Assembly (NCBI RefSeq): GCF_003144245.1
Contig: NW_020289986.1
Span: 124,001 to 188,000, forward strand
DNA from: Jaminaea rosea
Taxonomy: Eukaryota; Basidiomycota; Exobasidiomycetes; Microstromatales
Direction: 5' to 3'
Length of the DNA: 64,000 nucleotides
The notes below the pieces were generated by a model. The model was not told the origin of the DNA. It saw only the letters and a list, made by a program, of their open reading frames with translations, and did no database searches. A program made the position numbers and the translations under genes. Positions within the stretch are counted from its first letter, which is position 1. Each line of letters starts with the position of its first letter. Below, piece after piece: positions 1,964 through 37,585 of the stretch.

Positions 1964-3102
1964 TCACTTCTTGCCCTTCTTCTTGTTCTTCTTCTTCTTG
2001 TTCTTCTTGCTGTTCGACGACCCTCCGCCAGCGCCACTCGATGGGGCCGCGCCCGCCTCTGCATCGCCCGTCTTGTCGCCGGACCCTTCGCCCTCGTCGT
2101 CATCCCCATCCGCATCTTCATCGCCGCGCTGAGAGGCAACATCATCGCCCCTAGAGGGGGTGGTCGCGCCGGAGGGAGTAGCCTCAGCAGATGGTGTGTC
2201 AGCAGTCGCGGGAGCTGGATCAGCAGCGACGCCGGCGTCGACAGCTTCTGCCGGAGCCGGGTCACTCGGTACGGCCGACGGAGCTGGAGCAGCTTCTTGT
2301 ACAACTGCACTGTCGGACACGACAGCCTCCTTCGCCTCGCTACTCTCCTGCATTGCTTCAGTGGGGACCGAAGCGCCGCTCTCCTTTTGAGCAGCGATGG
2401 CGTCGACTGACGCCACAGTCTCAGGCGCCTCAGGCGCCTCGTCGTTGTTTGCTGCCTTTGATGATGCCGGCTTCAGTACCGTCTCCTCCTCTGTAGATGG
2501 TACAGCCTCAGTCTCCTGTGCATCTGTCTGCGGCTCTTCCTTCGCTGCTCCTTGCGCGGACGCATCAGTAGGCGTAGCAGGCCCTGCGATAGCCTCAGGC
2601 TTCTCCATCTGCTTGTCATCTGCCGCCACAATCTCCAAGCTACCCCGGACACTCATGTCCTTTTCCGGCGTAGGCGGCGGCGGGACCTCTTTCTCATCTT
2701 GAGTCGGCGTCGACGGGCGCGCTGTGTCTACCATAGTGGTTGCCGCACCGGCAGCAGCAGCAGCCGCGGCCGATCTCTTCCTAGCCGCCTCTGCCAAACG
2801 TTGTTGCAGGGTTTGACGTGGCGGGCGTGTAGGAGTGGCGCTGCCCGAAGCTGATGTCGAAGCTGGTGGGGTAGGAGCTGGTGAAGAGATTGCAGGCTCC
2901 ACGGCTGCGGATGCCTCAGCTGAGGGACGAGCTGGAGTCGTTGGGGTCGGCGGTCCTGTGTGGTTGGCCTCCGCAGGAGACGAACGACCGTTGGGAGATT
3001 GGTCGCGAGATGAGGAGGGCTGATGGGGCGCCGGTGAAGGTGCTGCGGCTGGAGGCACTGATGCGTCCGCGACTTCAGCTGTAGGCTTGACATCTAGCTC
3101 TG

Positions 3103-3133
<31 letters not shown>

Positions 3134-6100
3134 ATCTTCCTGAGCGATGCTCTCGATGGCTTCGGAAGGCTGGGCTTCCTGCTGGCCTTGAGCTTCCACA
3201 GAGCCCTTCGCAGCTCCATCGGCCACTAGCCCAGGTCCGCCCTCCTCATCGACGACCGTTTTGGTATGCTCAGCGACCTCTTGCGGCTCAGTCGGAGGAG
3301 CTGCATTTTGGCTTCCTGACGACTTGGATGGCTCATCGCCCTCGACGACTGACGGTGGCAGGGCAACCGCTTCCATTGAAGGGCGACCAGAGCTACTTGC
3401 ACTGCTCGTCCTCGCAGGAGGGGCCAGCTCGTCCACGCCCCCGCTTGCTGCGCTCATCGGCGGGCGAGCACCTTGCGCTTGCGCCTGTGACATCGGCGAC
3501 CCTTGGCCCGCAGGACTGGCCGCAGACCTGGGCGGGGTACCCTGCTGTTGCTGTTGTTGTTGTTGTTGTTGTTGCTGCTGCTGAGCATTCGCAGAAGCGC
3601 CTCGACGGCCGAAGGGGAACATTTTGCTTCGGTAGGCTGCAGGACCCGAGCGGGGAGAGGAAGCAGCTCCGCCGCCGACGGGGGATGAAGGCGCCGGTGA
3701 ACCAGGGCTGTTGGTATTCACTGCGGGTGGTGGGGCAGCTTTCCCGGCAGCAGGAGCGGTGGAAGACTTGCTTGCCGGCTGCTGCGCTGGCGGTGCGGGA
3801 GGGGTTTTGGAGCTAACGACCGCCCTCAAGCCCTTCGTATCCCATCCGCCCTCGGACATTCCTTTTAGACTTCCCAGCCTTGCGTCGAGATAGTCGACGT
3901 CCGCCTGCATACGCTTCATCGCACTCTCCCCGCCTTCACGCGTGACCTCGACCTTGGCAAACTCCGTTCCCACACGCTGCGTGATCGACGAAAGGACCTG
4001 CGCGGTGATTCCCTCGACGACGCTTGGCGCCAGGTACTTGCTCAGCACTTTGTGAAGAGTGCTTGTCTCTTTCACCAGGTCCACGATGGCCTTATTTGGC
4101 TGAACAGCTGGCGAAGTACTGTCACTTTCCTTCTCATCGTCGCCCTTTGCGGGGAGGGGCGCATTCCAATTCGTCACCGCAAGAGAGCGACAATGCACCC
4201 CCAATCTATCTCCCATAATCGCGACCAGCTTGGCATGAATCTCGAACATGTGTTCCTGGAAATCGCGCTTGAGCTTGTCGAACTCCACGAGCATCACGGC
4301 TTGGCGCTCGTCGGGAAGATGGCGGCGGACACACTCCCTGAGGTACGGGATCAAGTGAATGAAGAGCGAGAGGGACTGTGAGGCCAGGGCGAGGTGCTTA
4401 GCAGTGATGTTTTTGAGACCGGCTGAGCGCATGGCACCTGCGCCGAGTACTACTTGGCAGGTGCGGGAGTTGAATTGCTGCGGGCAAGGGAGGATGAGAG
4501 ATCAGACTGTGTTCACCTGCGACGGCGATCTTGAATCGCGCAACTCACCTTGAGGAACTCAACCTCGCGACTCATGATCTCCATCGTCCCCGTGACGCGG
4601 CTCATTCCGATGACGGCTTGCGTGTACTCCCTTGTGAGGTCCAGTACGCGCAGTGTAGCCGGAACAACGTAGAAGGACTTCTTGTCCCCAGCATCGACCG
4701 CAGTGCCACCGGCAGAAGAGGGCGCTTCTGACGGGATGGGTAGAGTGCTTGACATCTCTCTCGCCTGCCCTTCTGCTTTCTCCTCTTCTCCTGATGGAGC
4801 CGCATCCGGCCCCCAGCCCTCCGGATCCTCGCTGGCGCATTGCACAAGCTTGCGCACCAGCTCAACTGAGTTGAGCGGCACTTCCGCCTGGCTCCATGTC
4901 TCCTCTTCCACCCATCGTGCCGCTTTCTCCAGCCTCACGCGATGAAAGGCGCGCAGCCAATCTTTGCTTTGGTTGAGGAGTGTGGAGCGTAGTGGGATCA
5001 AGCGACGCATGCCCACTGTACTGTTACTGCTGCCTGTGGCTGTGGCTGTGCCCTCGGTCGAGCGAGGACGGATTTCCATCCTCTCCGTCCTTTCTACGAA
5101 CGCCATGAGCGGATCGAAGAAGGCCAGAAACTCTTGCATGGACAGCTGAGCGTGCGCTATTGCGCGAAGGGAGACGAGGCGCGCAATGAGGATGTGTGCC
5201 ACTTCGATGCTTGCGTGGAGTTGGGAGGCGAGGATATTTGGCAGGCCGTATGAGACTGTCGGGGGCATCAGGTATTGCGAGGCCGAGGCCTCCTCACGGG
5301 TGTCATCCAGGCCAATCTTCTCCTGTCGGGCAAGCCGGTCGAGAAGACCTAGTACTCCTCGCTCCTGCTTTTCAATCCTGCCAACCGCGGCCTCCATCCC
5401 TTCGCAAGCCGCCGACAGAAGAGGTGAGAACTCCTCCGTGCTCATCTCCCTCAGCCTCTTGGCCGCATAAGCGCCTGCCTCGCCCGTCCTACTCTCCCCC
5501 TTACCCGAGGCGGCAAGATCGTCGTCAAGCAGATCGAAGAGGGATGACAGTACGGGGTCCTCTCCACCTGGAGCAGACTGCAGGGCGCGCTTGAGGGACT
5601 GCCGGATGGAGAGGAGCGCAAGAGGGCGGTATGAAGAGGTTATCGCTTGCTCGAGGCCGGAGGTACGCACAAGACCGTGGACGAGGGGGCGGACACGATC
5701 CTGCAGAGGCCATTCCGCGTCGCTTGATGTTGGGGATGTTTCTGGCGGTTGCTCGAGACCCTGTCCCAGCACGCCTACGAGCTCTGCTTCCAGCTGGCCT
5801 GAGATAGCGGCTTCCAAATCGTCGAGGTCGGGTACGAGCGCGGCAATCGCCGGGATCTGCGAGAGGTCAACCTCTTCGCCGCTATCCTCTTGTTCCTCAT
5901 CCGTGACTCCGTTCGCATCATGTTCGCCGCCATTGGGCGCTTGGAAGGACCTTTCTCCTGTCGAAGGTGATCGCAACGGTGACAGTGTCCTGTCTTGATC
6001 GCCTCTTGCTCTTGGCTGCAGATCGTCCCTCAAGCCCTCAATGACAAGCAGCGCCTCCTCATACTCCCCCTGGCCGACCATCAACTCGACCATCCTCTTC

Positions 6101-7101
6101 GCCTCACACCACCTCTGTATCCTCTCCACACCCCTTATCCGTCTCAGCAATACCCTCCTCTCATCCTGCTTGCGCACTGCCCTCAGCCCTGTCTTCACGT
6201 GCGACTCTTCCACGGCTATGAGTTCGCTGCGCAGCGAGTGGATGACGGAGAGGCATGAGCTCGAGGACTGGGAGAGGTCTTGCAATGTGCCCAGGGCGGA
6301 GAAGAAGGAGGAGGAACGGAGTGAAATCTCATGCAGAAGATGCTGCTCAACTATGTCAGAGTAATGGCTGAGCTTGTCGAGGTGAGCATTTGAGTTTGGC
6401 GTTGGGCCAGAATTGGCTTGAGGTGCGACTGTGTCTGATATCGCAGGCTCGGCGCTGTTGGAGCCGGACGCATTGACGGCCCCGTACCGCTCCGTGACTA
6501 TGTCGAAGGTGTATGGGTTGCCGAGGTTGAAGTCTTCTTCGAAGAAAACCTGCGGCACGGCACTGAGCGGTGGGAGCTTGCCCTTGGCAACGGCGGTCGT
6601 AGCCGTCGAGGACGAAGCTGCATCGTCGCTGCCTTCCTGCTGCTGCGACAGCCTGGTCTTTGCGCTCCCTTTGGCACCGAGACTTTTGCTCTTGGTGTAT
6701 CTGTCCCACTCAGTCGACACCTCATCGATGTAAGCCTTGACGCTTTCCTTCTTTGGCCGCCTTATTTCAGCGTCCTTATGCGTTGGGAGGGGAGGATAGC
6801 GACTCGAGCTGGGGTCGATGGGATGCTGCCGCTTGTGAGGACTGTTCAGTACGGTCGAGAGGGCATTGAAGCCGCCAAGAAGACCAGCTGTGGATGACGA
6901 GGATGAAGTCGATGCATTGGCGTTGGTGTTGGCGTTGGCTGGGCTACCAGCAAAGACGGACAGGTTGAGCGTTGAAGCATTTGCGAAGTTGAGGCCGCCA
7001 GCTGCCAGGGATCGAGTGGTCGCAGAAGGGGCCTGTGACGATGAGAGTACAGACTCTGTGTCCGAGCCGGGGTCGTCAGCATCGACCGATGGCCGAGACA
7101 T
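1964..7101 (-). CDS. VPS54: VPS54, GARP tethering complex subunit, with long low-complexity tail
   Basis: Model complement(join(1964..4477, 4549..7101)), 1688 aa. The N-terminal part has the Vps54 signature VFFEEDFNLGNPYTFD (about residues 186-200), followed by the helical Vps51/Vps54-type region. Exon 2 opens with the most conserved Vps54 segment (NSRTCQVVLGAGAMRSAGLK, about residue 853 on). VPS54 is a subunit of GARP, which tethers endosome-derived vesicles at the trans-Golgi. The intron has donor GTGAGT at 4548 and acceptor CCGCAG ending at 4478. The start at 7101 (MSRPSVDADD) is chosen because upstream codons lack family resemblance. Family members are usually about 900-1000 aa. Here roughly 550 extra residues rich in Ala, Pro, Ser and Gln follow the conserved domain, with two poly-Gln runs and a basic Lys-rich end (KKNKKKKNKKKGKK). 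Confidence 0.88.
3541..3588. repeat. CAG/CAA trinucleotide tract encoding poly-Gln in VPS54
   Basis: On the plus strand this is a run of ctg/ttg triplets; on the VPS54 strand it is mixed CAG and CAA codons giving about 15 consecutive Gln. Interruptions by CAA should make it more stable than a pure CAG tract (general knowledge). A shorter, purer tract in the same gene lies at about 3103-3133. Confidence 0.9.
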
Positions 7102-7358
7102 GACGTCGGCTGCGGTGTGACCAGAATGTAGGAACAGGATTGGAATGAAAGTGTTGCTTGGCCAAGTCCAAGTCCCAGTCGATGCCTCGTGTGTCGGGCT
7201 GGCCTGAGCGCTCGAGGGTCGAGCGGCTCCTTGACTTGGCCGACGAATCCCGTTCCGTCGACAAAGCGGCATGCAACTCTTGACCGTTGTCCTTGTCCGC
7301 CCTCGGATACCACATCTTCAACCTCCACGCCCACCAGCCTGGTCCCTCCTCTTCAGCA

Positions 7359-10885: not shown

Positions 10886-11148
10886 CACTGAAGGCGGTTG
10901 GGCGTGCGATTGGTAACGAAGACGAGGAGAGAAAGTGAGTCCCAACGCAGCGAGAACAGTGTTGGTTGGCTCTGCCAAGTCGCAGCGGCTCACAACCACG
11001 TGGTTTTCTGGGCGCTCGAGCCATGCAAATTGGAATTAGACTAGCTCGCCTCGCCTTCTCCGCTCGACCTTCTTATCTCTCTGCATCTGCATATACCCCA
11101 CACATTACGTCTCCTCTTCCAGGCCGCAGTGCACAATTCAGCTTCACG
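10886..11148. promoter_or_regulatory. Shared divergent promoter region of MSC2 and urease
   Basis: The 263 bp between the two start codons must carry regulatory sequence and 5' leaders for both genes. I see no clear TATA box and no motif I would name with confidence. Confidence 0.5.
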
Positions 11149-13118
11149 ATGCACCTCCTGCCCCGCGAAAGGGACAAGCTTCTCCTCTCTCAGGCCGGCT
11201 CACTAGCACAGCGACGCCTCGCTCGCGGCGTCAGGCTCAATGTGGCCGAAGCGACGGCTCTCGTTGCCTCTGTCCTCCAGGAGCGCATACGGGATGGCAC
11301 CCATTCCGTTGCCGACCTGATGCAATTGGGCAAGACGATGCTGGGTACACGGCATGTTCAGTCAGGCGTAGCGACGCTCTTCCACGAAGTCATGGTAGAA
11401 GGTACCTTTCCTGACGGAACATTCTTAGTGACTGTGCACGACCCCGTCTGTACAGAGAAGGGCGATCTAAGGGAGGCACTGTACGGGTCCTTCCTCCCCA
11501 TTCCAAGCGACGACCTCTTTGGACCTGAGCCAGAGCCGCTGGAACATCTCCCGGGAGCAGTCGTCACTGTACGCAAAGCTGCGGATATCACCCTCTGCCC
11601 GGACAGGAAGCGCGTCACGCTACGAGTAACAAACACGGGGGATCGGCCGATCCAAGTTGGGTCGCACTATCCCTTCGTCGAAACCAACCCGGCCCTTTCC
11701 TTCCCTCGTCTTTCTGCCATTGGTATGCGCCTGGACATCGCTGCCGGTACAGCCGTGCGGTTTGAGCCGGGAGACGTCAAGTCGGTCAGCCTCGTCAGTA
11801 TTGGCGGGCAGAAGCGACTCGCACAGGCGGGCAACTGCATTGCGAAAGGCCTCGTCGCCGATCTCACCTCTCAGGGCTCCCATGACGAGATACTGCAACG
11901 TTTGCAGGCCGGCAAGTTCTGCAACGAGCCCTCGCCGTCTGCTCCCCTCCCCGCGCCGCCAGCATACACGCTCAGCCGCCCAGCCTATGCGGCCCTCTAC
12001 GGCCCCACGACCGGTGATCGTGTCCGACTGGCGGATACGGACTTGTGGGTCGAGGTGGAGCGCGACTTCACGTCGTACGGAGACGAGTGCATGTTCGGGG
12101 GAGGCAAGGTGCTCAGAGATGGAATGGGCCAGGCAACGGGGAGGAGCGACGAAGAGACTTTGGATGTAGTGATCATCAATGCGCTGATCTTGGACTGGTG
12201 GGGAGTGGTCAAGGCGGATGTGGGAATCAAGGAAGGGCGCATTGTGGGAGTGGGTAAAGCGGGGAATCCAGACATCATGGACAGGGTGACGCCAGGCATG
12301 TGAGTGGGCGACGGTGTGCGACGACCTTGCCAGCGCAGCTGCCCTGACCACCCATCGCTTCTTTTCCCCCGCAGGATCATCGGCTCCTGTACTGAGGTCA
12401 TCGCAGCTCAAAATCAGATCCTGACCGCAGGCGCCATCGACGCCCACGTGCACTACATCTGCCCGGACTTATGCGAGGAAGCCCTCTCCACGGGCATCAC
12501 CACACTCATCGGCGGTGGGACGGGCCCCACATCGGGTACATCCGCCACGACCTGTACCCCTGGGCTCGACAATGTCCGCTTCATGATGAGAGCGACGGAT
12601 GATGTGCCGCTCAACTTTGCGTTCACGGGCAAGGGTAACGATTCGGCGCGACAGGGGTTGGTGGACCAAGTCAAGGCGGGTTGCGCGGGATTGAAGTTGC
12701 ATGAGTGAGTGCCGCAGACCCTGTCCGAATGCCGTTGTTTTGACGCTGACGACTGATTGATTTGTTCCGTCGCAGGGACTGGGGAACGACTCCGGCGACG
12801 ATTGACAGCTGCCTCACCGTCTGTGACGAGTTTGACGTGCAGTGCAATATTCACACGGACACCCTCAATGAGTCGTGCGTAGGAACAACGGGAGGCTTGG
12901 GGTCGTGATGAATGGCACTGACTCGTCTTCGCCCTTTGCGCACGCAGCTCCTTCGTCGAAGGCACCATCTCCGCCTTCCGAGGCCGCACAATCCACACAT
13001 ACCACTCCGAAGGGGCAGGGGGAGGTCATGCCCCCGATATCATCACGGTTTGCTCAGTCCCCAATGTCCTCCCCTCGTCGACCAACCCTACCCGGCCCTA
13101 CACGGCCAACACCCTCGA

Positions 13119-13155
<37 letters not shown>

Positions 13156-13920
13156 TCGCGCGACATCGCAGAGGACGTCTCCTTTGCCGACTCTCGCATC
13201 CGAGCAGAGACCGTAGCGGCAGAGGATGTGCTGCAGGACCAGGGGGCTATTAGCATGATCTCGAGTGATTCGCAGGCTATGGGCAGGATTGGGGAGGTGG
13301 TCAGCAGGACATGGAGAACGGCGGCCAAGATGAGGAGCATGACGGGGCCCCTTGAGACGGAGGGGGATGAAGCCGGGGAGACGGCGAGTGCGCCGAGCAA
13401 AGACAATGAGAGAGCGAAGCGGTACGTGGCCAAGTACACGATCAACCCGGCAATCGTGCACGGCCTTTCCCACGTTGTTGGATCGGTCGAGGTGGGCAAG
13501 CTGGCCGACCTGGTGCTCTACAAGCCGGCCCACTTTGGCACTAAGCCAGAGATGGTGCTGAAGGGCGGGCAAGTAGCTTGGGCGCAGATGGGTGACGCGA
13601 ATGCCTCGATCCCGACTGTGCAGCCCATGTATGGCCGCAAAATGTACGGCGCCCTACCCAAGGCGGCACACCACAACTCGTTCTGCTTCGTATCGAAGGT
13701 GTCCATCGACGAAGGGATCGTGGGGGCCTACGGACTCAACAAACGGGTGGAAGCGGTAAGAGGGTGTAGAGGAATCACGAAGAGGGATATGAAGCTCAAT
13801 ACAGCTCTGCCGAAGATCGAGGTCGATCCGGAGACGTATGAGGTGAAGGCGGACGGGAGGATATGCACCGTCGAGGCAGCGACGAAGCTGCCTATGACGC
13901 AGGCCAGTCACTTCTTTTAA
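11149..13920 (+). CDS. URE1: Urease (nickel enzyme, single-chain fungal type)
   Basis: Model join(11149..12299, 12375..12704, 12776..12874, 12948..13920), 850 aa, close to the usual fungal length of about 835. The chain contains the fused gamma (start [13 protein letters not shown]), beta and alpha parts in order. Nickel-site elements are intact: HVHYICP with His408 and His410, the Lys that is carbamylated (Lys491 in GLKLHEDWGTTP, rebuilt across intron 2), CNIHTDT, the [15 protein letters not shown] loop, the flap Cys-His ([13 protein letters not shown]) and the Asp of [14 protein letters not shown]. It hydrolyses urea to ammonia and carbamate in the cytosol and needs nickel and accessory proteins, none of which are seen in this window. 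All three introns have GTGAGT or GTGCGT donors and each junction restores the expected urease residues. Confidence 0.95.
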
Positions 13921-14062: not shown

Positions 14063-14591
14063 TCACTGCCCCTCCCTCTCGCCCTTGGGCTTCAGCACAA
14101 CGTGGCAGCTCCTGTGCTGCACCAGGTACGATGAGCTCGCCGGGCTACCGTCCTCTCCAGGGTTGCGCTGGATCCTGAAATCAGCCTCAACCTGCATCAA
14201 GGTGCCCTTGGGAATGGCCGTGAGACGCTGAACGGCTTGCTCGCCAAACCCAAAGATGGAGTGAAAGCTAGACGTGTCGGGCCCACGCTCCCCGTCTTCG
14301 CCGGGAGGGCCGGCGGGGTCGTTTGTAGCGAGGGTGTAGCGGACATACTCCTTGCCCGAGCGGGTAGTGCGGACCTCGGGGTCTGCGACGAGGCGACCCA
14401 GGAGTTGCATGCGGGCGAAGTCGCTAGCAGAGGGGGTGGTGCTGAAGGACTAAGAGCGTGAGATGGGCGGGGGGAGGTGTGAGCGGCGGCCGGCAGATGA
14501 GACACTGTCCATGAGGGGGTGTCAAACTCACTCGAGCAGCCATGTTGACGGCCTGGCGAGGCGCCAAGGAGGATCGGATGGCGGAAAGCAT
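14063..14591 (-). CDS. RIM1: Mitochondrial single-stranded DNA-binding protein
   Basis: Model complement(join(14063..14449, 14532..14591)), 148 aa. Exon 1 encodes MLSAIRSSLAPRQAVNMAAR, a basic, Ser/Ala-rich mitochondrial presequence that continues into SFSTT. Exon 2 carries the OB fold of bacterial-type SSB: LLGRLVADPEVR, YTLATND, SIFGFGEQAVQRL, and KGTLMQVEADFRIQRN. Rim1-type proteins coat single-stranded mtDNA during replication. The intron has donor GTGAGT at 14531 and acceptor CTCTTAG ending at 14450. The gene converges with urease, with 142 bp between stops. Confidence 0.88.
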
Positions 14592-15429: not shown

Positions 15430-16034
15430 TCAGATCATGGCAAGTACGAATGCCGTGGCGCCGAGGAGAGTGATCCCGGCGGCAAGAGGGGCTTGCATCG
15501 CAGAAGGTGCAGCATTCGAGCCGCCGCTGCTCGAGGACCCCGCACGCGACGTAGACTGTGCGGCGTAGGTCTTCTCGAGGCCTGAGAGCAAGGACCAGAC
15601 AGCGTCTGCAGTGGACGTGCCATACCTCTGGTAGACGGCCGACGAATATGTGGGGTTTGCGTAGGCGGAGCTGACCCGCGAGATGAAAGGGCCGGGGTCG
15701 CCACCTGTTTGGGCCTGTAGGTAGTCGGAGCGGAACTGCGGATCCCTCAAAGCCGACGCCTGGGCCGATTGAATGACCTGCAGGCCGGTGTTGAAGACGG
15801 GATTGTTGGCGAACAGCGATGAGAAGTAGCTGTTGTCCTGGCGCCTCTCCTGTAGGATGAGGGTGACGTGACGCAGGCCAAAGCAGTCAGTGATCACGCT
15901 ACGGTCAGATCTGATCCACGATGCCATGGCACTCGACTCACAAGAGGGGCAGCTGTGGCCTGAGGCTGAACGGCAGCCGCAGAGACGCACGCGACGATGG
16001 TGAGGAGCAGAGATGCGGCAATGGTGATCTTCAT
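15430..16034 (-). CDS. Small secreted GPI-type protein A (tandem family member 1)
   Basis: Model complement(join(15430..15849, 15942..16034)), 170 aa. Exon 1 encodes a clean signal peptide (MKITIAASLLLTIVACVSAA) and a short pro-segment ending TAAPL. Exon 2 begins ERRQ, a dibasic KEX2-like site. The body (YFSSLFANNPVFNTGLQVIQ on) contains no cysteine. A Ser/Gly linker leads to GGSNAAPSAMQAPLAAG and a hydrophobic tail ending FVLAMI, the layout of a GPI-anchor signal. Function is unknown. It is clearly a paralogue of genes B and C downstream in this window: same exon structure, pro-region, ALGTS/YGTSTADA-like segment and tail. The donor is GTGAGT at 15941. A TATA-like element lies about 115 bp upstream of the ATG. 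A cell-wall or surface role is inference. Confidence 0.85.
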
Positions 16035-16085
16035 GTTCGTGTTGTTGAGAGCAGAGGAGGGCGAGAGAATTGGGAGTTGGGAGAT

Positions 16086-16101
16086 GGGCGGTAGGTGTAG
16101 G
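16086..16101 (-). promoter_or_regulatory. Shared leader motif upstream of gene A
   Basis: The minus strand reads CCTACACCTACCGCCC, 52 bp before the gene A ATG. The same 16 bases with one change occur before gene C (19058-19073) but not before gene B. The motif lies between the TATA-like element and the start codon, so it may be in the 5' leader. Confidence 0.4.
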
Positions 16102-16147
16102 TGTACTATACAGAGAATGAGATGGAGGATACGGAGCCTTATCTGGT

Positions 16148-16153
16148 CTTATA
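16148..16153 (-). promoter_or_regulatory. TATA-like element of gene A
   Basis: The minus strand reads CCTATAAGACC here, about 115 bp upstream of the gene A start codon. The position fits a core promoter with a leader of under 100 nt. The element is inferred from sequence and spacing only. Confidence 0.45.
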
Positions 16154-16968
16154 GGGTGTGGCAGGTAGACGAGAGAGCGTGAGAGGGCATCTCGTCTTGT
16201 TTGTGTGTGGGTCATGCGTCGAGCGTGGGGAAAAGCAGGCATCTGGACAGCCTGCGACTCTATTAGCAGCTTCAGCATGCTGCTCGAGACGGGATGGTGT
16301 TCCATCAAGCATGATGCAGCCTCTCAAGGCTGCTTTCTGATGCGCTAGTGGATCCGGTCTTGAGTGGAAGGCTGCCCCGATCAGGCTTGCCGTCCCCGCG
16401 ATGCAGCCGGACGCTCGTACGGAGGTTGATGCGCCCTCGCTTGAAAGTGCGCGACGAGGGAGCGACGCCCAGAGACGCTGAGAACTCTGATGAGAACAAG
16501 CGCGTTAGCGTCCTTCGTCCTTCGCCTCGCCTCAATAGCTGCTCAGCGATTCCTACCCTTGGTCGAGGCCCTCCCTCGGTCCTTGTTCGTTCGTTTCCGT
16601 CCGCTGCTCATATCTATTCAGCTCGGCACTGGACGACTTCCACGCACAAGCCAGCCCGACGATGGCCGAACGATACCAACGGCGTCTCGTCCCTTTTCGC
16701 AGTTGGCAGCCTGGACGTGAAGGCGGGATGACTTGCAGCAGACGCCGACGACGAGAGAGAAGAGGTCATTCACAAAGCAGGTGCTATTGAGCAAGGAGCC
16801 CGCTGAAGACAGAAGAGCGAGCAAGGCAGCCTCCGACCCCCTTCGCTGACTCTGACATAGGGAAAGAAAAGTGAAGATGACGGAGCGTGCCGTGCTACCG
16901 TACACAAGGTCAAGGTGCTGATGGACAGAAGCGATTCCGATCTGGGCATCCCTGTCAGTCGCACCCAC

Positions 16969-17550
16969 TTAGATGAGGGCCAGCACGAAAGCTGTAGCAC
17001 CGATCAGACTAAGAACAGCGGCGAGAGGAGCCTGCATAGCCGCAGTGGCGGCGTTACTTCCGGAAGACCCGGTGGGAGACGACTTGAGGGACGATTCAGC
17101 GGATGTTACAGCCTGCTTGTAGGCAGAGTAGAGGGCGTCGGCCGAGCTGGTCCCAAGCGCAGAGTAGACGGCCTGCGAGAGCGTTGGATCCGACGCAGGG
17201 CCTGCGAAGTACGAGAGGGAAGCAGCGCCACCTTTCTCCACAGCGGAGGTAAGCTCAGGGTTGTTGAGGAAGTGATCGCGGAAGGATTGGTAGACAGGAT
17301 TCTGGGCCAGAGCAGTGTTGGAATCGAAGATCGATTCAACACCTCCGAGGTCCGTCTGGCGTTTCTCCTAGGGAAAGTGGCAAGGGGAAATGTACGAGTA
17401 AGCGACGGCGATGTCATTCATAATGTTCCAACCTTCATGAGGCAACAGACTCACAAGGGGCGCGGTAGTGGCTCTGGGCTCGACGGCAGCGGCAGAAGCG
17501 CCGACGACGATGGTGGCCAGCAGAAAGGAGAGCTGAGCAAAGACCTGCAT
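16969..17550 (-). CDS. Small secreted GPI-type protein B (tandem family member 2)
   Basis: Model complement(join(16969..17367, 17455..17550)), 164 aa. Exon 1 gives a signal peptide (MQVFAQLSFLLATIVVGASA) and pro-segment VEPRATTAPL. Exon 2 starts EKRQ, a KEX2-type site, then a cysteine-free body with NPVYQSF, DPTLSQAVYSALGTSSADA, and the tail GSSGSNAATAAMQAPLAAV ending FVLALI. Layout and intron position match A and C exactly; the DPTLSQAVYSALGTSSA segment is closest to gene C. The acceptor is CCCTAG ending at 17368. A consensus TATAAA lies about 150 bp upstream. Function is unknown; surface or wall localisation is inferred from the signal peptide and GPI-type tail. Confidence 0.85.
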
Positions 17551-18344
17551 CCTAGTCGTGATAAGTTTTGGGGTAGCGATAGAGGGCTTGAGAGGGGCTG
17601 GATGCAGATGAAGACGTTGCAAGTGGACAATCGATAGAGGGCGAGGGCAAGGGATGGACACAAAGACACAGCTGCGTCTCATTGTGAAGTCCCCTTTATA
17701 CCAGGTAGACGAGACTAGGCCAGCTCCCTTCGGCAGTATTTCATCGTCAGCGCGTAGACCACGCTCGGAAGGTAGGTACGGGCAGGCCTCTCATCACTAC
17801 GCAGCCTTCAGGTTCTTGACGGTGCGCAGAACGACGAGATAATCGACTGCAGACTCCGGCGCTAGTGTGCTTGTCGGATCCAGAGCAAGAAAGCTCGAGG
17901 CGTTGATGCGATCCACTTTCACCCTTTCCGCTTGCTCGGACATTGTTTTGCGCTCGCTTCACCCGCCGTAGGCACAACGGTGAGACAGGGCCATCAACGC
18001 TAGCTCAAAAGGCAACCAGCGAAGTCGACGAGGCTCTGAAAGCGTTCCCATGATAGAACCTTATGCGACCGTATAAGAAGGGTGATCGAAAGTGACGTGG
18101 CTGTTCCTCAGTCTGTTGGAGATACTCCAGCGAGTTACTAAGCAAGCAGAGTCAAGGAGAAAGACGCCTCTCTCATGGTCGACGTGTCAAGGAGCGAAAG
18201 ACAAAGTGACCTTCCTTCAAAACGACGGGGCAATGAGAGGCATAAAGGGGCATGGAGCTCGATGGCCTGCACCCGATGGTCATTGAAAAGGTCACCCTCT
18301 TGAGACAAGTGACAAATGATCCTGCAGGTCCGATCTCGACACGA
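17551..18344. other. Intergenic between secreted proteins B and C
   Basis: About 790 bp with the gene B promoter and the 3' flank of gene C. I see no coding frame I would support. Confidence 0.5.
17695..17700 (-). promoter_or_regulatory. TATA box of gene B
   Basis: The minus strand reads GGTATAAAGGGG, a consensus TATAAA about 145-150 bp upstream of the gene B ATG. A strong TATA box suits a highly or conditionally expressed secreted protein gene, which is inference. Confidence 0.55.
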
Positions 18345-19023
18345 TTAGATGAGGGCAAGAACGAAAGCCGTAGCACCAATGAGGCCGAGCCCAGCAGCCA
18401 AAGGAGCCTGCATGGAAGGAGCAGCGTTGGAGCCGCTGCTAGTCGTCGACCCTGAAGGTGACGATGCGGCAGACGACGACGCGCCCGAACCCCCCGATGA
18501 AGCTCCCGAAGCCCCCGAAGCGCTTGCAGACGTTTGGATCTGCGAGAGGGAAGACTGCCCAGCCTGGATGGAGGAGTAGATGGCGGCTGCCGAGCTAGTG
18601 CCCAGAGCGGAAACGATGGCCTGCGAGAGGGTCGGGTTGGCCTGCAGGGAGTTGACGTACGACTGGAAGGGAGCGACATCGCCCGTCTGGGCAGCGGCAG
18701 CGGCGGAGAGGGCGGCCGAGTCCATGGCAATGGAGGCCGCGATGGACTGGAAGGCCGGGATGGTGAGGAGTGCAGAGTATTGCTGCAGTGCCGATTGGAA
18801 GGCTCCGGCGTCCTGACGCTTCTCCTGACGAGCCGCGGATCAAATAATCAACGAGTCAACGTGTTAGCAAGCAGCAACAGCCATGGCTTTCGCCCGAGGC
18901 GCCGACCCTTGGTCCTTCGTTGAGACTTACGAGAGGGGCGGCAGTAGCCTGAGGCTCAAGAGCAGCGGCAGAGGCGCAGGCAGCGGTGGCTACGAGGAGG
19001 GCGATAGATGCGGTGGTCTTCAT
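18345..19023 (-). CDS. Small secreted GPI-type protein C (tandem family member 3)
   Basis: Model complement(join(18345..18824, 18931..19023)), 190 aa. Exon 1 encodes a signal peptide (MKTTASIALLVATAACASAA) and ALEPQATAAPL. Exon 2 starts EKRQD (KEX2-type). The Ala/Gln/Ser-rich, cysteine-free body contains NPTLSQAIVSALGTSSAAA, then a longer Ser/Gly/Ala linker than in A or B, and the tail GSNAAPSMQAPLAAGLGLIG ending FVLALI. The donor is GTAAGT at 18930 and the acceptor CGTCAG ends at 18825. The main difference from A and B is the expanded Ser-rich linker (about residues 120-160), which would hold the body further from the anchor. Function is unknown. Confidence 0.85.
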
Positions 19024-20245: not shown

Positions 20246-22428
20246 CTACTGATCCTTCTTCGTCTCCGACTTGCTCTCGATGGCCTTTCGGTCTCCTGCC
20301 TTCTCACCCTCATCCGTCTCGCCATCATCGAGCTTCTGTCCGAACTCGTTGACTCTCTTCTTGTCGACGCCATACGCCCACCACTGGTAGAGGTAGATGA
20401 AGAAGACTACATCATCTCTCAAAGTAGCCAAGCGATGCAGAATCGGCATCTTGACGATCCCCCATGCGAACAGATCGTCCACAAAGGTGTTGAGAATCTT
20501 GTACACAAGCGTCTTTGGCGGCATCCCTGCGACGCTCTTGAGGCGGTAGTTGATAATGAGCTGCGGCACCAGCGCGATGAAACCAAAGGCGTAGACAAAT
20601 GAGGTGAGTGTCCCGATGACGAAGCTCCACCATCCTCTGTGCGTCTCATAGTAGGCAGAGTAGATCGTGTACCCCACAAGGAGCGGGCCAGTGAAGTATG
20701 AGACGAGTTTGAAAGCTTGTCTGTCGTACTCCTTTGTCTTGAGATCGTCCGGCGTTGGGACGTACTTGTCCCTCACCTCGAGACGATACGGCAGCCGACT
20801 GCCCGGTGGCGAGCGAACGAGTGTGACGGTGACTGCTTTGGTGAGCTTCCAGGCCTCTATGACTACTCCCACCGCTTGGGAGCCGAGGATCATGTAAGAT
20901 GTCTCTTCGGATGAGTCAAAGAGGTAGAGCAGGATAATCGTTTGTGTCACGATGTTGGTCATGATTGAGCCCAGAGATACGCCGACGAAGTTCTCCTGCG
21001 GATCGCAAGGGGAAGAGTGGTAAGCGAATAGCACGTCGTGGCGATGGCTGGGGTCTCGGGGCTCACCTTTTTTCTGTAGAACTGGACCTCGCCTGCAAAC
21101 GCCAAATATTCGAACAAGGCGTGGGTCAAAGTGACAATTAGCGTCAGGGCGAGGTACCACGGACTCGTGTTCTGCAGCGTATGCTTGATGATGTCGATCT
21201 CCCCACTCGCCATGCCCGGCTGCTTTTCGAAAGAATCGCTCATGGCGGCCAGTAGCTGGAACTTGAACCATGACGTCGAGTACAGCGAGATGTGCAATGG
21301 CAGCACAGGCGTTGTAGCATTGATCGGGTTCATGTCCTCGCGCAAGTCCCAGAATGTGTTGGCGAAGATGACTGGATAGTTCCACATCCGAGTCTCGTCT
21401 ACTCGACCGTCGACGGTTTGCGAGTGCATGACGCTGCCGTCTGGATTGGTGGCGAGGTGAACGTGCTGGAGGAGAGGCGGGGGGATAGCGCCTACTTGTA
21501 TGCCGGGTGTGACGTCTTGGTGCGGTAGAGCCAGGGTCAGGTTGCGATGCCAGTAGGTGATGATCTGCTTGGACGAAGTCTCGTTGCGAAGCACGCCGTC
21601 CTCGCCCATCATCAGATCCTCGTCGTGCTCCTCGCTGCTGTCCTTGCCTGCCTCGCTGCCCAGCAGTCTTCTTCCCTCGCGATGCTTACGCGCGGGGTAG
21701 AGACGGGTGAGTAGCTTCCTCATCCGGGTTTTATGCTCCGTCGTGCGTACATCCATGCCGCTGCCCACGGCAACGACGTCCGCCCACAGCGAGCCATTGT
21801 TGTACATGACCTCGGGCGGCGTTGCGATGTTGATGTCGGCGACCAGCCCGGCATTCAGGCGAGTATCATTGAGCGCGAGCGACCCGAACTTGATGATGGG
21901 CAGGGCTCCCTCTCGAATCGACGTCACGACTGTATGCTGTCCAGGCGCCGCGTAGCTGTCATGCAACGTGGGGTACAGGTCGAACGAAACGACTTGGTCA
22001 AGAGCAGGAGCGCGATGGCTTCCTGGCGCCAAAGGGGAGAGTTGAGTGCCAATGTCCTCCACACTGGGCGCCGCCGAATGCGAGAGGAAGACGTAGAAGT
22101 CGAGCTCGCTGGTCGAAGGCCACAAGGGCTGCGATGAAGCATTCTTTGGCACTCTCAGCAATGGAGGCGTGAGGACAGGAGGTGGTCCTGCTGGTGCTCC
22201 GAGCTTCTGAAGCCAAGCGGGCGGCTCCTGCGCTGGCCGAGGTGCGGTCGCGTCACCCGTCTTTGCTGACTGTGGTGGCTTAGGCGCTAGGAGCTGCGTT
22301 GCCGTATTGATGAAAAAGTAGATGGCCAGACCCTTCAAGATCGTCCGCTTCCAGTCTGTTGCCTGCTGTTGATCCCCTCCCGCGTTACCACCACCGGCTG
22401 AGGGAGCCACAGCTCCAGCAGAAGACAT
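20246..22428 (-). CDS. CLPTM1-family multi-pass membrane protein
   Basis: Model complement(join(20246..20995, 21067..22428)), 703 aa. Exon 1 has an N-terminal membrane segment (ILKGLAIYFFINTATQLL) and the large luminal domain typical of cleft lip and palate transmembrane protein 1 relatives (FDLYPTLHDSYAAPGQHTVV, then YWHRNLTLALPHQ). Exon 2 carries the conserved membrane part (GSIMTNIVTQTIILLYLFD, PQLIINYRLKSVAGMP, NTFVDDLFAW). The intron has donor GTGAGC at 21066 and acceptor CCGCAG ending at 20996, and the joined VQFYRKKENFVGVSLGS matches the family. The highly charged C-terminus is Lys/Glu-rich. Animal CLPTM1 proteins act in ER/Golgi trafficking and lipid scrambling; a role here is inferred. 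The ATG at 22428 (MSSAGAVAP) is chosen because upstream sequence is not family-like. Confidence 0.85.
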
Positions 22429-23576: not shown

Positions 23577-26194
23577 ATGACCACCTTTGAAGCAGCTCAT
23601 CACAGAGGAGCTGCCGCAGGGTCCGCGGCCTCGATGCCTAGCGGCCGTATCTCAACCAACGGCACAGCTACTACTACGTCGGTGAGTTCCACGTTTCTCT
23701 CTCTCTCTCTGGCAAGCTTCGAGAACAAGGTTAGAGAGGAAAGCCAAGACCGAGATGAGACCCTGCGGCTGCTGCAGCATGCTTGCATTGTACATCGTCG
23801 TGGTAGATATGGTTGCATCGGGGTCGACGGCCTAGCAGCATACCTTAGGTCGTCATCTCGTCGTCCGTTCACCATCATGTGCGTCTCGTCGAGAGACATT
23901 TTGGTGGTGACCGGACCTCGACGGAAATGGGGCGCCGGCCGGCCTTGACGCCGCCCTTCTCATGCTCTGTGCTCTCTGCCTTGTCGTCCGCGCCCGCTTT
24001 CCTGGTTCGCTGCTGCCAGCTAGCGATGATCGATCTTGCCGCGGTCTCCGGGGCAGCGCAGCAAGGGCTGGTCAGGCCCTGACTCGCGGGCGATCCGAGG
24101 CAAGCAAGCAAGCAGGCAGGCAAGCAAGCAAGACCGTTCGAATTGAATGGCGCGCAAGCAGGCAAGGCAAGCCTCGGCCTGGTTATGCAGTCCAGAGCTG
24201 CACTCAATGCTGCGCACCGTTCCCACAAGCGCTTCTCGTGGCCGTTCCCTTTCTCTAGCTTTGCTTCGCATTCGTCGACAACGTCCTGGTAGTAGTGTCG
24301 AAGGCCTCGACCCCCCATCTCAGGCCCTTTTGTTGGTGAGCACGCGCTCGCACGCAAAGCTGCCGCCAGAAAGCAGGGCCCTCGCTGGGGCCGATTTGCC
24401 GCTGCGTGCTGCGCGAGGGTTGCGCGAGTTGAGGCCTAGAGTTGGGCACTTTGCCAGAGGAATCGGCCATCTGCAGAGATATCTTTCTCATGCGCGGCAG
24501 ACGCGGGGGATCACCGCGGCCCCTTAGCGTGGGGATTCGCTCGCAGCGTCGCAGCGTCGAAGCCAAGCTTGGCTCTAGACCTTTTTTTCGAAGAGCGGGG
24601 CAAAAGACACGAGTGGGGCTGAGGGCATCGAATGGTCCGCAGCATCGCAGCATGCTTATCTGCCAATGACGGAAGCGGGGCACAGAGCATCGCAGCATGC
24701 ACTTGCTACCACGACCCTTCCTAGACTGAAAGCTCACGCCTTGCCTGTTGCTCGCTACCATCGCGCTCGCAGAACCCGCCTCCCAAGGGCTTCTTCAACC
24801 CCGCGCCAACAAAGGCAACGACGGCCGTCGATGCTGGCGCTGATGGAGCACGCGGCAATGCGAGCAGCGTGGGACGACCCCGTCGAGAGTCCATTGGTCA
24901 GATGAGGAGAAAAGCCTCAGATTCAGCAACTGCAGCAGCCTCCGCCGGAGGTATCGGCCTCGCCTTTGCCAACAACAACAACGGTAGTCGAGGCCAGCCG
25001 ATCCCCGTTGGCAGATCCGCCATTCGAGGATTCTCAACTAGTCCAAGGTCGGGTCCCACGTCCGATGCTCCCTTCTCGACGTCTTTGGGATCCGCCGCCG
25101 AGGCCATCTCCTTACCAGCCTCGGTCCTTAATAGCGGCGCAAAGTCGGGTCGCTCAACAGGTCACACGCATTTTGGCCAAGAGTGCTTCGGCCCTGAGCC
25201 AGATGAGCCCGCCATCCCCAACCCTCCTGCCCATCTGACCAAGAATGGATCATTGCCATCGTCAGCTCCTGACGGCAGCTCAGGGTCTCTGCCCAACTCG
25301 TCTGCGCTCCTTGCTGCAGCCGCAGCCGCTCGTAGAGGCTCGATCGCAGAGTCATCCAACGCCGGCGACGACGACGCCTCGTCCGTATCTGGCGGCAATG
25401 GTGGCGGCAGTGGGCGCAACGGCAAAGAACTTCCCATTCACCGCTGTGAGAGCTGCAACAAGGTCTACCGCCACCCGAGCTGCCTCGTCAAGCACCGCTG
25501 GGAGCACACCGTCTACTGGAAAGAGGCGTCCAAGTTCCTCATGTCCAAGCACCAGCAGGTTCAGCTCCTTGAAGCCGCCGCTATCCTTGTCAACATGGAT
25601 GGCGACTCTACCAGCCTGCCCGATGAAAAGGCTCTCTGGCCCGCAGCTGTGTCCCCTGCCACTTCGGGGCTGCTCGGCTCAGACAAGGTCAACTTTGACA
25701 AGATGATGCAACGCAAGGTCGCACGACGAGGTCGATCGTCTAGCTCCGCCACAAGTGACTACGACGCCGCCTCCACCGTAGGCGGCGCCCGCCCCTCGTC
25801 GCTCTCCCGCTCATCGAGTGCCGGCATGAGCCCGCTCAACAGCTTCAGCAAGCTTGGCCTCTCTGGCGGAACGCCGGGCTCACACTCGGCTCGTCCCGCA
25901 CTTGGCACCTCCTACAGCAACTCCTTTACGCCCTACTCGTACGGCTCCCTCGGTGGGACTCACCGACTCAACTCGGACATCCAGCACCTCGTTCTCGATG
26001 AGTCTGATGAGCGTACTACGACTACGTCGACCGACAACTCGGACGATCGTACGGACAGTCGTGACCGCTCTGGCTCGGCCGAGACGACAGAGGACGATGA
26101 CGAGGACGACTCGCCGGGCGGGGAGGGCGCCAAGGAGAAGAAGATGTGGGGCTTGCACGAGGACGCGGTCGCGGAGATGGACATGGAGGAATGA
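23577..26194 (+). CDS. C2H2 zinc-finger protein, probable transcription factor
   Basis: Model join(23577..23681, 24773..26194), 508 aa. Exon 1 ends TTS at a GTGAGT donor in phase 0. Exon 2 opens NPPPKGFFNP after CTCGCAG and runs open to the stop. One C2H2 finger is present: Cys260, Cys263, His276 and His280 (C-x2-C-x12-H-x3-H). It is followed by a conserved-looking stretch (VYWKEASKFLMSKHQQ then LLEAAAILVNMD) that I recall from other fungal single-finger proteins. The rest is Ser-rich and disordered, with an acidic region near the C-terminus. DNA binding and regulation are inferred; the target is unknown. The 1091 bp intron is exceptional for this window, where others are 60-110 bp. Confidence 0.75.
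24101..24133. repeat. AAGC/AGGC tetranucleotide repeat inside long intron
   Basis: Imperfect repeat of AAGC with AGGC variants inside the first intron of the C2H2 gene. More copies of AAGCAGGCAAGG type follow near 24150. Confidence 0.8.
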
Positions 26195-26826: not shown

Positions 26827-29800
26827 ATGTCGTCGTCTATGGCACCGCCGTTTCAGACGCCCCGCCGCCCAGGACCCTCAGCGACAACACCCTTCAAGAC
26901 GCCTCTGCGTACGCCAGGCGAGCAAACATCCCAAACACCAGTTGTCGACTTCGACCTCATCGAGTACCAAAAAGAAAATGTACAGCCGATGTCAAAGGGC
27001 CGCTCGGCGCACTCGCTCAGCCAGACGCTCGCTCTCAAGCACAAGGAAAGAGCAGAGGAGCTCGCAGTAAAGCGCCAAGAGTACGAGAGCAAAGTCCAGC
27101 CTGACAAGCTGGCAGAGAGCGACGACCCGCTCGCAGACTGGTGCGACTATGTACAATGGACCATCGTCAGCTATCCAAGTGGCGCGTCCGCCGACTCTGG
27201 CTTAATTACTGTACTCGAGAGGGCGACGAGATCCCTCCGCAGCGACGCCAGATACTGCAACCCACACGAGCCACGCTACCTCAAGCTCTGGACACTCTAC
27301 TCGGAGAACGTCGAGAGCCCAGAGCTCATCCTCAACTGGCTCTTGGCCAACGACGTCGGGACAGCATGCGCAGAGCTGTACGAGAAAGCAGCTGCTGTGG
27401 CAGAGACGCGGGGATTGTACGAGTCGGCCGACTCCCTCTTCAAGCTCGGCATCCGCCGCAACGCCCAGCCCAATTCACGCCTCCGCAAGCGCTTCGAAGA
27501 ATTCAAGGAGCGCCTTGTACGCAATCAGTCCGCTGCTGAGAGGGGCCTTGACTATGCTTCGGCCCTCGCTCGGGCTATGCGTGAGAGCAGGAGAACAATG
27601 CTGGGAAACAAGGATGAGAAGACGGGTAAGAGTGTCCATGCCAACGTCATGCGTGGCGCTGGCAAAAGCGCCGGGCTGGGATCCGCAAACACGGTCAACA
27701 ATGGACGCAAGCTCAACGTCTTCCGTGACTCCGAGGGTAGCCTGTCTGGCGCAGATGGCAAGGGACCGGAGGCATCCGAGTTGGGCAGCCGCGATGTGAG
27801 GAGGCAGGAGAATGCAAAGGAGGCTAAGGGGTGGAACGGGGAACGACTCCCTCAGAAGGCGCGTCTTGGAGGTTCTTCTGCACTCACCCCCGGCAAGAAG
27901 ACGCTCAAGGTCTTTGCAGATTCGGACGATGAGGAAGCGGAGGAGCAGCGATCACCCAGCAAGGGGCGTCAACTCTCAAATACGAAGCCAATGCTGGGCT
28001 CGTCACACCCTGAGGTGGACTTACTCAAGCGCGACCCGTTCAGTCGATGGTCGCAGGACGAGCGAGCTCAAGTGACTGCCTTGAAAGGTTTGCAGCTCGG
28101 TGACGTGGAAAGTGTTGCTCAGCACGCAGCGCCTGCAGCGACCAATTCTAGGAGAGCTCCTGAGCCATCTCGCTCCTCGTCTGGCAAGTCAAAGAATACC
28201 TCATCAGCAAGCTCCAGCTCACGATCCTCGTCCTCCAAGCCTTCTGCTCCGCCAAGCGGCGCGAAGCGTCCCGAGCGTCTTGCCCTCCCCGAGTCACTCT
28301 TCTACCCTGGCCTCGACATCGAGCAGGCGAACGGCCCTCGACCCACAACGGGAAGTATAGAGCGCTGCGTTGAGCAGATCATTGCGGCAAGGCTTGGGTT
28401 CAAGCTCAATTTTGATGGCGACGAGGACGAGGACCCGTGGGCATACCTTGATGAGCCGATGGAGGTGGAGCAGCCTGAGCCTGCCATGGAAGAGGACGAC
28501 CAGGGGCCAGAGCCTATGGCTAGCTCAAGCTCAACGCCCACACGAGCGACAGTTGGTGCCGAGCGCGAAGCGTCATCAACGCCAACCCAGTCCGGCCGTA
28601 TAGCCGCCCCGGCAGCAAAGACTCCGCCTCGTGAGCCAACAAGGACGGGCATGAAGCCATCGAGCCCGACAGTTATGACTAAAGCAGCGGAGGCCGAGGT
28701 TCGCGCCCTCTTCAACGGCGGCGACGAGGACAGCGATGAAGAGGAGGATGAAGACTCTGACGAGGAGTCCTCAGACGAGGAGGAAGAAGAAGAGCAGCAG
28801 AAGCCCGCAAGACCCTCTCCGCCCGCAGCAAGTCGCGACGATGAGAACGCCGGCGTGGAAGCAACACCGCTCCGGCCTAGCAGCCATGGTCAGCCGCTCG
28901 GACTCAAAACTCGAGGTCCCACGGCAGCCGCAACGCCGATGCGCAAGCCACTGGGCGCCGTTGCCGCCACTCCCCTTGGCGGGATCGGTAAAAAGCCCAT
29001 TTATGTTGAGGAAGATGAGGATGAAGAGCCGGAAGAGGAGCGCCCCCGTCCTACGGCTCAGCGCATCCTTCCTGTCGCTCACGAGGAAGATGATGAGGAG
29101 TCGGACCCCGATGAGGAGGAGCAGCGCCAGTACAACTATGGCGATGGGCAAGACCTCCTCGAGGGTGGAGCTCGCTTTGATCAGCTCACAACCATCTCTG
29201 AGCGAACCGAATTTGAGACGCGGTGGGGTATGAATACGCCGGGGAGGAGTCGCAGCGTATACATGCCTACCAATACGGAGGAGGACGAGGAGGAAGAAGA
29301 GGAGAACGAGGACGTATCCAAGCAGCAGCAGGAAAAGCAGCAAGTCGCCGGTACCCCCTCGCAGGAGCGCTCTTTCGCCTCCGAGAGTAGCGAGCAACGC
29401 GAGACTTCTGCGGGCCACACGGGCCGCTTCGGTGGCGGAAGAGCGAAGTTCGAGATGAGCCCTGGCTATACCATTGAGAAGCGCGAAGACTGGACGAGCG
29501 AGGCGACTTCTCCCTCCTTGTCGCGCAAGGCTCTGGCTGCTTCAAGCGCAGTGACCTCAACAAGCATCCCCAATCCTTGCTCACCGACCGATGCGGACGT
29601 CCTCTCCGTCCTTTTGTCCTCGCTCCCGCTCTCCGTCGAGACTTCGCCCGACTTCTTCGACTTCTCCAACATCTCTTCGGGCAAGCTCGCCACTCTGCAA
29701 CGACAAGCGAAGGCCCAGACGCGCAAGTCCGTTGGGAACACTTCTGCCACCGGACTTGTTGGCGGTGCAAAGGACTGGTGGCTGGAGATCGATGGCAACC

Positions 29801-37345: not shown

Positions 37346-37585
37346 CGTAGTGAAGAGGCGTCGTAGGGTGACTATACGAAGGGACGGCAACAAGCTCTAG
37401 AAGCCAAGACGCGCCCATTTCGCAGCCAAGACGGATGGACGGAAGCCCATCGGATGGATGACGTAAGCACAACTCTCCTCCCGTCCGCCGCACAGACCTT
37501 CGCCGGCGGCAGGGGAGCAAAGGCGAGGGCGGCGACTTGCCTCCTTCACTTCTTTCGTCAGCAAGCATTCATTTACGTCCTAACC

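What the first reader, a model, noticed from the sequence alone, without database searches (positions are those of the whole stretch)
15430..19023. Tandem family of three small secreted GPI-type proteins
Genes A, B and C lie head to tail on the minus strand, 934 and 794 bp apart. Each has a signal peptide, a pro-segment ending (T/A)APL, a KEX2-like E(K/R)RQ site, a cysteine-free body and an almost identical GPI-type tail (GSNAA...MQAPLAA, then GATAFVLA(L/M)I). B and C share the segment TLSQA(V/I)(Y/V)SALGTSSA. The bodies diverge strongly while the ends stay conserved, which suggests fast evolution of the exposed part. I recognise no family with this layout. Cysteine-poor GPI proteins processed by KEX2 could be wall components, host-facing surface proteins or peptide precursors.
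Basis: partly seen in the sequence, partly recalled or inferred. Interest (0 to 1): 0.75.

Follow-up and report, generated by a model that had tools for sequence, protein, structure and literature searches.

The report
Three related fungal cell-surface protein genes
A fungal chromosome carries three old tandem copies of a gene for a small surface protein, probably trimmed at the front and lipid-anchored at the back, that matched no protein family we could search; it looks like a new but not strange family of wall proteins.

Summary
Three two-exon genes (A 15430-16034, B 16969-17550, C 18345-19023, minus strand) encode 170, 164 and 190 aa with one plan: signal peptide, short pro-segment, one L-E-(K/R)-R|Q Kex2-type site, cysteine-free body predicted helical, Ser/Ala linker, GPI-type tail. 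The intron lies at the same codon boundary, phase 0, in 3 of 3; exon 2 encodes the mature protein. Body homology is real (0 of 1000 shuffles for each of 3 pairs). No fourth copy was found in the window. Pfam, NCBIfam, PDB sequences, Foldseek and viral and prokaryote contigs gave no relative; no fungal protein collection was on hand, so 'orphan' is untested where it matters. 'Fast evolution' is not supported: dN/dS is below 1 in every region and dS is 0.89 or more; the body is the less constrained part of old duplicates, the tail the most constrained. Best reading: a family of Kex2-matured, GPI-anchored wall proteins, working like Candida Ywp1 or the Ops4/Pga17 group, but not shown to belong to any known family.

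The parts
15430..16034 (-). Gene A, 2 exons, 170 aa precursor
   Evidence: Gene model and splice sites; family profile hits
15942..16034 (-). A exon 1: signal peptide + pro-segment ending ATAAPL
15850..15941 (-). A intron, 92 nt, GTGAGT..CTACAG, phase 0
15430..15849 (-). A exon 2: ERRQ site, body predicted helical, linker, GPI-type tail
16969..17550 (-). Gene B, 2 exons, 164 aa precursor
17455..17550 (-). B exon 1: signal peptide + pro-segment ending ATTAPL
17368..17454 (-). B intron, 87 nt, GTGAGT..CCCTAG, phase 0
16969..17367 (-). B exon 2: EKRQ site, body, linker, GPI-type tail
18345..19023 (-). Gene C, 2 exons, 190 aa precursor
18931..19023 (-). C exon 1: signal peptide + pro-segment ending ATAAPL
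18825..18930 (-). C intron, 106 nt, GTAAGT..CGTCAG, phase 0
18345..18824 (-). C exon 2: EKRQ site, body, long Ser/Ala/Gly linker, GPI-type tail
16148..16174 (-). A core promoter words: TCTCGTCTACCTG (starts -140 from ATG, shared with B) and TATAAG (-119)
17695..17714 (-). B core promoter words: TCTCGTCTACCTG (-164) and TATAAA (-150)

Best explanation
A, B and C are old tandem duplicates of one gene for a small GPI-anchored wall or cell-surface protein. Shown: shared gene structure, homology, single Kex2-type site, hydrophobic ends, constraint pattern. Inferred: the signal peptide takes the protein into the ER and is cut at about (V/A)SA|A; the tail is exchanged for a GPI anchor, most likely at the N of GSNAA (omega N, then A, A; recalled rule); in the late Golgi a Kex2 protease cuts L-E-(K/R)-R|Q and removes about 15 residues, leaving an N-terminal Gln that could cyclise; Ser-rich linkers are O-mannosylated; the mature protein (about 100-130 residues) stands on the wall or membrane as a small helical body on a short stalk (A, B) or a long one (C). 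Its job is most likely structural or surface-modulating (coat, adhesion or anti-adhesion, masking), not enzymatic: the invariant body residues are one Asp plus Ser, Thr, Gln, Pro, Gly and Ala, with no His, Glu, Lys, Arg or Cys, and the best-kept part is one hairpin, P-T-x-S-x-A..GTSxAxAxxS.
For: Same intron position and phase in 3 of 3 genes and same order of parts. Body similarity, 0 of 1000 shuffles for each of 3 pairs. C-terminal 18 residues uncharged with mean hydropathy 2.2-2.6, and no 15-mer above 1.6 between residue 41 and about 30 residues from the end in 3 of 3. Cut-site context: Leu at P4 and Lys/Arg at P2 as described for Kex2 in PMC8528282 (part 1 of 3 of the text read); Asp at P2' in A and C and at P3' in B, which for A and C agrees with acidic residues being enriched at P1'/P2' of cleaved sites in PMC2515848 (passages). 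No dibasic pair after the site in 3 of 3. Invariant body residues. AlphaFold2 gives six helices for A, block pLDDT 63-75 for residues 11-90 of exon 2; C, at low confidence, gives the same six in the same order plus a short helix 17-20 and a helix in the tail. Tail dN/dS 0-0.10 against 0.46-0.70 in the body. Precedents for Kex2-cut wall proteins: Ywp1 (PMC6258133, passages) and the Ops4-like group with Pga17 (PMC2515848, passages).
Against: No signal-peptide or GPI predictor, transcript or proteome was available. The structure model of A is mediocre (mean pLDDT 59; the other four models 44-51) and that of C poor (45), and both come from the same three sequences; B was not modelled on its own. 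Tail letters are conserved more strictly than a GPI signal usually needs (13, 14 and 16 of 18 identical by pair, composition shuffles mean about 3 and at most 10), which this reading does not explain by itself. Acidic P2' fits only 2 of 3. Nothing points to one particular surface role.
Confidence: 0.62

Rival explanations
1. Host-facing surface effectors: the Kex2 step activates a GPI-held or shed helical protein that acts on a plant or animal host, in the manner of Kex2-processed pro-domain (K2PP) effectors.
For: Small, one Kex2-type site in the first half, as used to pick K2PP candidates (PMC8528282, part 1 of 3 read; motif). Tandem copies with divergent bodies.
Against: GPI-type tails on 3 of 3 copies. 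The genes lie among housekeeping genes (SSB, urease, CLPTM1). No sign of positive selection: dN/dS 0.46-0.70 in the body. No host or expression data.
Confidence: 0.18
2. The released pro-peptide (about 15 residues, AA-V/L-x-P-x-AT-x-APLE-K/R-R) is itself a secreted peptide signal, and the GPI part is a carrier or a second product.
For: 10 of 15 pro-peptide columns are identical in the three copies (counted on the alignment), against 31-39% pairwise identity in the body.
Against: A single short peptide per precursor. Repeat-type precursors (KEPs) need at least 3 tandem repeats between Kex2 sites (PMC7329392, passages), which is not met. The same conservation could reflect processing context only; pro-segments ending in APLE-x-RQ are common in fungal secreted proteins (recalled, not tested).
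Confidence: 0.08
3. HsbA-like galactomannoproteins (PF12296): cysteine-poor helical wall proteins that bind hydrophobic surfaces, diverged beyond recognition.
For: Similar general make-up (small, secreted, helical, wall-linked; recalled). HsbA is found in all taxonomic groups analysed in PMC5872309 (passages).
Against: No listed match to PF12296 for any of the 3 proteins at E up to 10, though HMMER's filters drop most matches above about 0.1. Foldseek of the mediocre model of A against PDB has no match better than E 1.2.
Confidence: 0.07
4. Tail-anchored or single-pass membrane proteins: the C-terminal helix stays as a transmembrane segment and is not exchanged for GPI.
For: The tail letters are unusually conserved, as a helix with specific contacts would be.
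Against: The hydrophobic segment runs to the last residue with no basic residues after it, and is preceded by small residues and a spacer, as in GPI signals (recalled rule; sequence).
Confidence: 0.05

Closest known systems
Ywp1, yeast wall protein 1 of Candida albicans (PMC6258133, passages)
   Same: Anchored to the wall by its processed C-terminus, N-terminal segment cut off by Kex2 at multibasic sites, O-glycosylated core.
   Different: Much larger (378-aa core), with an 11 kDa N-glycosylated propeptide with a disulphide that stays bound; here the pro-segment is about 15 residues, without cysteine, and the precursors have no N-glycosylation motif. No sequence comparison with Ywp1 was run.
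Ops4-like family with Pga17 of C. albicans (PMC2515848, passages)
   Same: Paralogous family of five without assigned function, cut by Kex2 in vitro; the paper's scheme of these and other substrates marks potential GPI sites.
   Different: Ascomycete yeast family; homology was not tested, and which members carry the GPI site was not seen (legend only; that Pga17 is a GPI protein is recalled).
Kex2-processed pro-domain (K2PP) effectors (PMC8528282, part 1 of 3 read)
   Same: Signal peptide, pro-segment, LxxR/KR-type site, mature domain in one piece.
   Different: The cases named there are secreted effectors; here a GPI-type tail is present and no host role is shown.
Kex2-processed repeat proteins (KEPs), e.g. 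Rep1 of Ustilago maydis (PMC7329392 passages, PMC8528282 part 1)
   Same: Kex2-cut secreted precursors in fungi.
   Different: One site and no tandem repeats between sites here.
HsbA / galactomannoprotein family PF12296
   Same: Wall-associated, helical, low in cysteine (recalled).
   Different: No listed Pfam match at E up to 10 for 3 of 3 proteins.

Membership tests
GPI-anchored fungal surface proteins (as a class) | Cleavable N-terminal signal peptide | tested here: inconclusive
   Hydrophobic 10-mers of mean KD 2.5-2.7 within residues 7-18 and an A-x-A or S-A type end in 3 of 3; no predictor was run
GPI-anchored fungal surface proteins (as a class) | Small-residue omega region, spacer and uncharged hydrophobic C-terminal end | tested here: met
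   SNAA, a short spacer, then about 15-18 hydrophobic residues to the C-terminus in 3 of 3; judged by a recalled rule and hydropathy, not by a predictor
GPI-anchored fungal surface proteins (as a class) | GPI actually attached; wall or membrane location | not testable with these tools
   Needs biochemistry
Kex2-processed pro-domain (K2PP) proteins | KR/RR or LxxR motif in the first half of the protein | tested here: met
   LERR, LEKR, LEKR before Gln, 3 of 3; criteria from PMC8528282
Kex2-processed pro-domain (K2PP) proteins | Disorder-promoting residues before the motif | not tested
   No disorder calculation was run; AlphaFold was given exon 2 only
Kex2-processed pro-domain (K2PP) proteins | Effector function on a host | not testable with these tools
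   No host or expression data
Kex2-processed repeat proteins (KEPs) | At least 3 tandem repeats of 8 or more residues between Kex2 sites | tested here: not met
   No further dibasic pair after the site in 3 of 3; definition from PMC7329392 (passages)
HsbA (PF12296) | Match to the Pfam model | tested here: not met
   Not listed at E up to 10 for 3 of 3; filters drop most matches above about 0.1
Ywp1 / Ops4-Pga17 groups | Sequence homology | not tested
   No fungal protein collection on hand; neither sequence was fetched

The most novel reading that the evidence does not exclude
The three precursors each give two conserved products, a short Kex2-released peptide and a GPI-bound helical protein, and their GPI tail is a sequence-specific sorting signal, not a generic hydrophobic end. 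This would explain why pro-segment and tail are kept far better than the body across old duplicates.
Probability: 0.07. Interest if true: 0.55.

Novelty: new member of a known kind. Interest (0 to 1): 0.33.

Why it matters
If orthologues are confirmed, this is a family without a Pfam model of small, cysteine-free, probably helical surface proteins in a fungus, a kind that cysteine-based effector and wall-protein screens would miss. The clean split, exon 1 for the removed part and exon 2 for the mature part, and tails far better kept than bodies give a compact case for asking what a fungal GPI signal must specify. Without expression or comparative data it remains an ordinary wall-protein family.

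Tried and rejected
Internal duplication: the six predicted helices suggested a doubled three-helix unit. In nine half-against-half comparisons with 2000 shuffles each, between 30 and 1898 shuffles reached the score (best: first half of B against second half of C, 30); the profile comparison had probability 1% with a P-value of 0.025. Weak, not accepted.

Gene conversion of the ends: rejected as the reason for conserved tails, as synonymous sites there differ as much as elsewhere (pS 0.60-0.78; 12 of 18, 9 of 18 and 8 of 20 identical residues use different codons).

Positive selection: not supported. With three such diverged sequences, episodic selection cannot be excluded.

Relatives: viral contigs with the exon-2 alignment (25 pattern matches, 0 confirmed) and with the body alignment (81, 0 confirmed); genome contigs with the body alignment (91, 0 confirmed). 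These hold viruses and prokaryotes, so a miss says little about fungi. PDB by profile: best E 0.78 and 1.3, taken as chance. NCBIfam: best E 0.21, taken as chance, a prokaryote library. Foldseek with the model of A: best E 1.2 in PDB (27 matches to E 10) and 1.8 in the viral library (75 matches to E 10); two spider-silk domains in the PDB list reflect helical Ala/Ser composition at most. The model of C was not searched.

Order of duplication: not resolved; A and C share the body centre (QTG-D..PF) and more of exon 1, B and C more of the hairpin.

Literature: ten searches; judged from the titles and abstract starts listed, no paper describes this family. One search returned none; one search listed 12 of 17 and one search listed 8 of 43; two searches gave nothing relevant. 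Passages of PMC4759460 and PMC8159752 were seen and not used.
Full report
What is there. On the minus strand between an SSB-domain gene (14063-14410) and a CLPTM1 gene (two overlapping ORFs, 20246-22428) lie three head-to-tail genes. Rebuilt models give precursors of 170 (A), 164 (B) and 190 (C) residues. Each has one GT-AG intron, of 92, 87 and 106 nt, at the same codon boundary, phase 0. Exon 1 ends ..APL, exon 2 begins E(K/R)RQ. So exon 1 encodes signal peptide and pro-segment, and exon 2 the cut site and all of the mature protein.

Is it more than chance. Bodies alone (between the cut site and GSNAA) align with local scores of 82 (A/B), 122 (A/C) and 118 (B/C); shuffled means are 32, 41 and 46 and 0 of 1000 shuffles reach the observed value in each case. 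DNA repeats in register cover the 5' and 3' ends of all three genes (D1, D2) and the hairpin of B and C (D4). A profile of the three finds each gene's two exons; the next six-frame fragment has E 0.18, and one fragment with whole-sequence E 9.9 has a best-domain E of 0.032. Of 585 six-frame fragments of 60 aa or more, 4 end in an uncharged hydrophobic 18-mer of this strength: A, B, C and one poly-Cys artefact.

Anatomy. N-terminal hydrophobic cores lie within residues 7-18. The pro-segment is about 12 residues plus E(K/R)R. Cut-site contexts are LERR|QDNS, LEKR|QTDL and LEKR|QDAG; no dibasic pair follows in 3 of 3. Leu at P4, Lys or Arg at P2 and Arg at P1 match the Kex2 preference summarised in PMC8528282 (first of three parts of the text read). 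Acidic residues at P1'/P2' were over-represented at cleaved sites in PMC2515848 (passages), as here in A and C but not B. The body has 105, 98 and 126 residues from after the Gln to GSNAA, is Ser and Ala rich with 12, 13 and 3 charged residues in A, B and C, and the precursors have no N-glycosylation motif and no cysteine outside the signal peptide. The best-kept body segment is a hairpin, P-T-x-S-x-A-x5-G-T-S-x-A-x-A-x2-S, at A 95-117, B 91-113, C 93-115. The invariant body residues include no His, Glu, Lys, Arg or Cys. AlphaFold2 of A (3 sequences) gives six helices, mean pLDDT 59, block means 63-75 over residues 11-90 of exon 2 and below 50 in most of linker and tail. C gives the same six helices in the same order, plus a short one and one in the tail, at mean pLDDT 45. 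The second model rests on the same three sequences and is not independent evidence.

Evolution. dN/dS in the body is 0.46 (A/B), 0.70 (A/C) and 0.46 (B/C); in exon 1 0.31, 0.28 and 0.33; in the tail 0 (dS saturated), 0.08 and 0.10. dS is 0.89-1.92 or saturated. The first 90 alignment columns of the body, which leave out most of the Ser linker, give 0.54, 0.82 and 0.52, still below 1. The copies are old, each region is on average under purifying selection, and the tail is the most constrained part. Codons in the tail differ between copies even where residues agree (12 of 18, 9 of 18 and 8 of 20), so gene conversion does not explain the tails.

Promoters. A and B share TCTCGTCTACCTG just upstream of TATAAG (-119) and TATAAA (-150); C has TTAAAG at -112; A and C share CTACCGCCCA in the leader. 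Shared regulation is plausible but not shown.

Relatives. No meaningful match in Pfam (only DUF3446 at E 6.3 for A, none for B and C), NCBIfam, PDB sequences, PDB folds, viral folds, viral contigs or prokaryote genomes. None of these is a fungal protein collection, except that Pfam covers fungi through its curated families. No genome is held for the window, so neither the number of copies elsewhere in the genome nor orthologues could be examined.

Mechanism. Most likely: ER entry, GPI transfer at SNAA, Kex2 maturation in the Golgi, display of a small helical body on a Ser-rich stalk at the wall. Precedents seen: Ywp1, where Kex2 cuts an N-terminal part from a wall-anchored protein, where uncut protein is still anchored and the propeptide's function is unknown (PMC6258133, passages including part of the abstract); the Ops4-like group with Pga17, cut in vitro (PMC2515848, passages). 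In bakers' yeast 45 of 58 known or predicted GPI proteins were found O-mannosylated (PMC4824858, passages), so O-mannosylation of these linkers is expected. These papers show that the layout itself is a known kind; the family is new only in sequence, within the libraries searched.

Verdict. The one mildly surprising feature is how closely pro-segment (10 of 15 columns identical, counted on the alignment) and tail (13, 14 and 16 of the last 18 residues by pair) are kept in old duplicates.

Noticed in passing
15430-19023, exon 1 and start of exon 2 of A, B and C: The pro-segment AA(V/L)(E/Q)P(Q/R)AT(A/T)APLE(K/R)R has 10 of 15 columns identical in the three copies (alignment), well above the body; pro-segments usually drift (recalled).
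   Followed up: partly
window 16148-16174 and 17695-17714: A and B share a 13-base word TCTCGTCTACCTG directly upstream of a TATA-like box; A and C share CTACCGCCCA in the leader.
   Followed up: partly
window 1964-7272, minus: Vps54-type gene: two long ORFs carry the C-terminal (PF07928) and N-terminal (PF10475, just below its cut-off) parts, with poly-Gln runs.
   Followed up: no
window 11023-13920, plus: Single-chain urease gene (gamma, beta and alpha parts in one ORF, amidohydrolase part in the next, so introns are inferred) close to the family.
   Followed up: no
window 26827-30885, plus: BUB1/Mad3-type kinase in one uninterrupted 1352-aa ORF.
   Followed up: no
window 24902-26194, 32481-36200, 37454-39604, plus: Three long ORFs (430, 1239, 716 aa) without a Pfam match at E 0.001; the first contains a C2H2-like CESCNKVYRHPSCLVKHRWEH stretch.
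   Followed up: no
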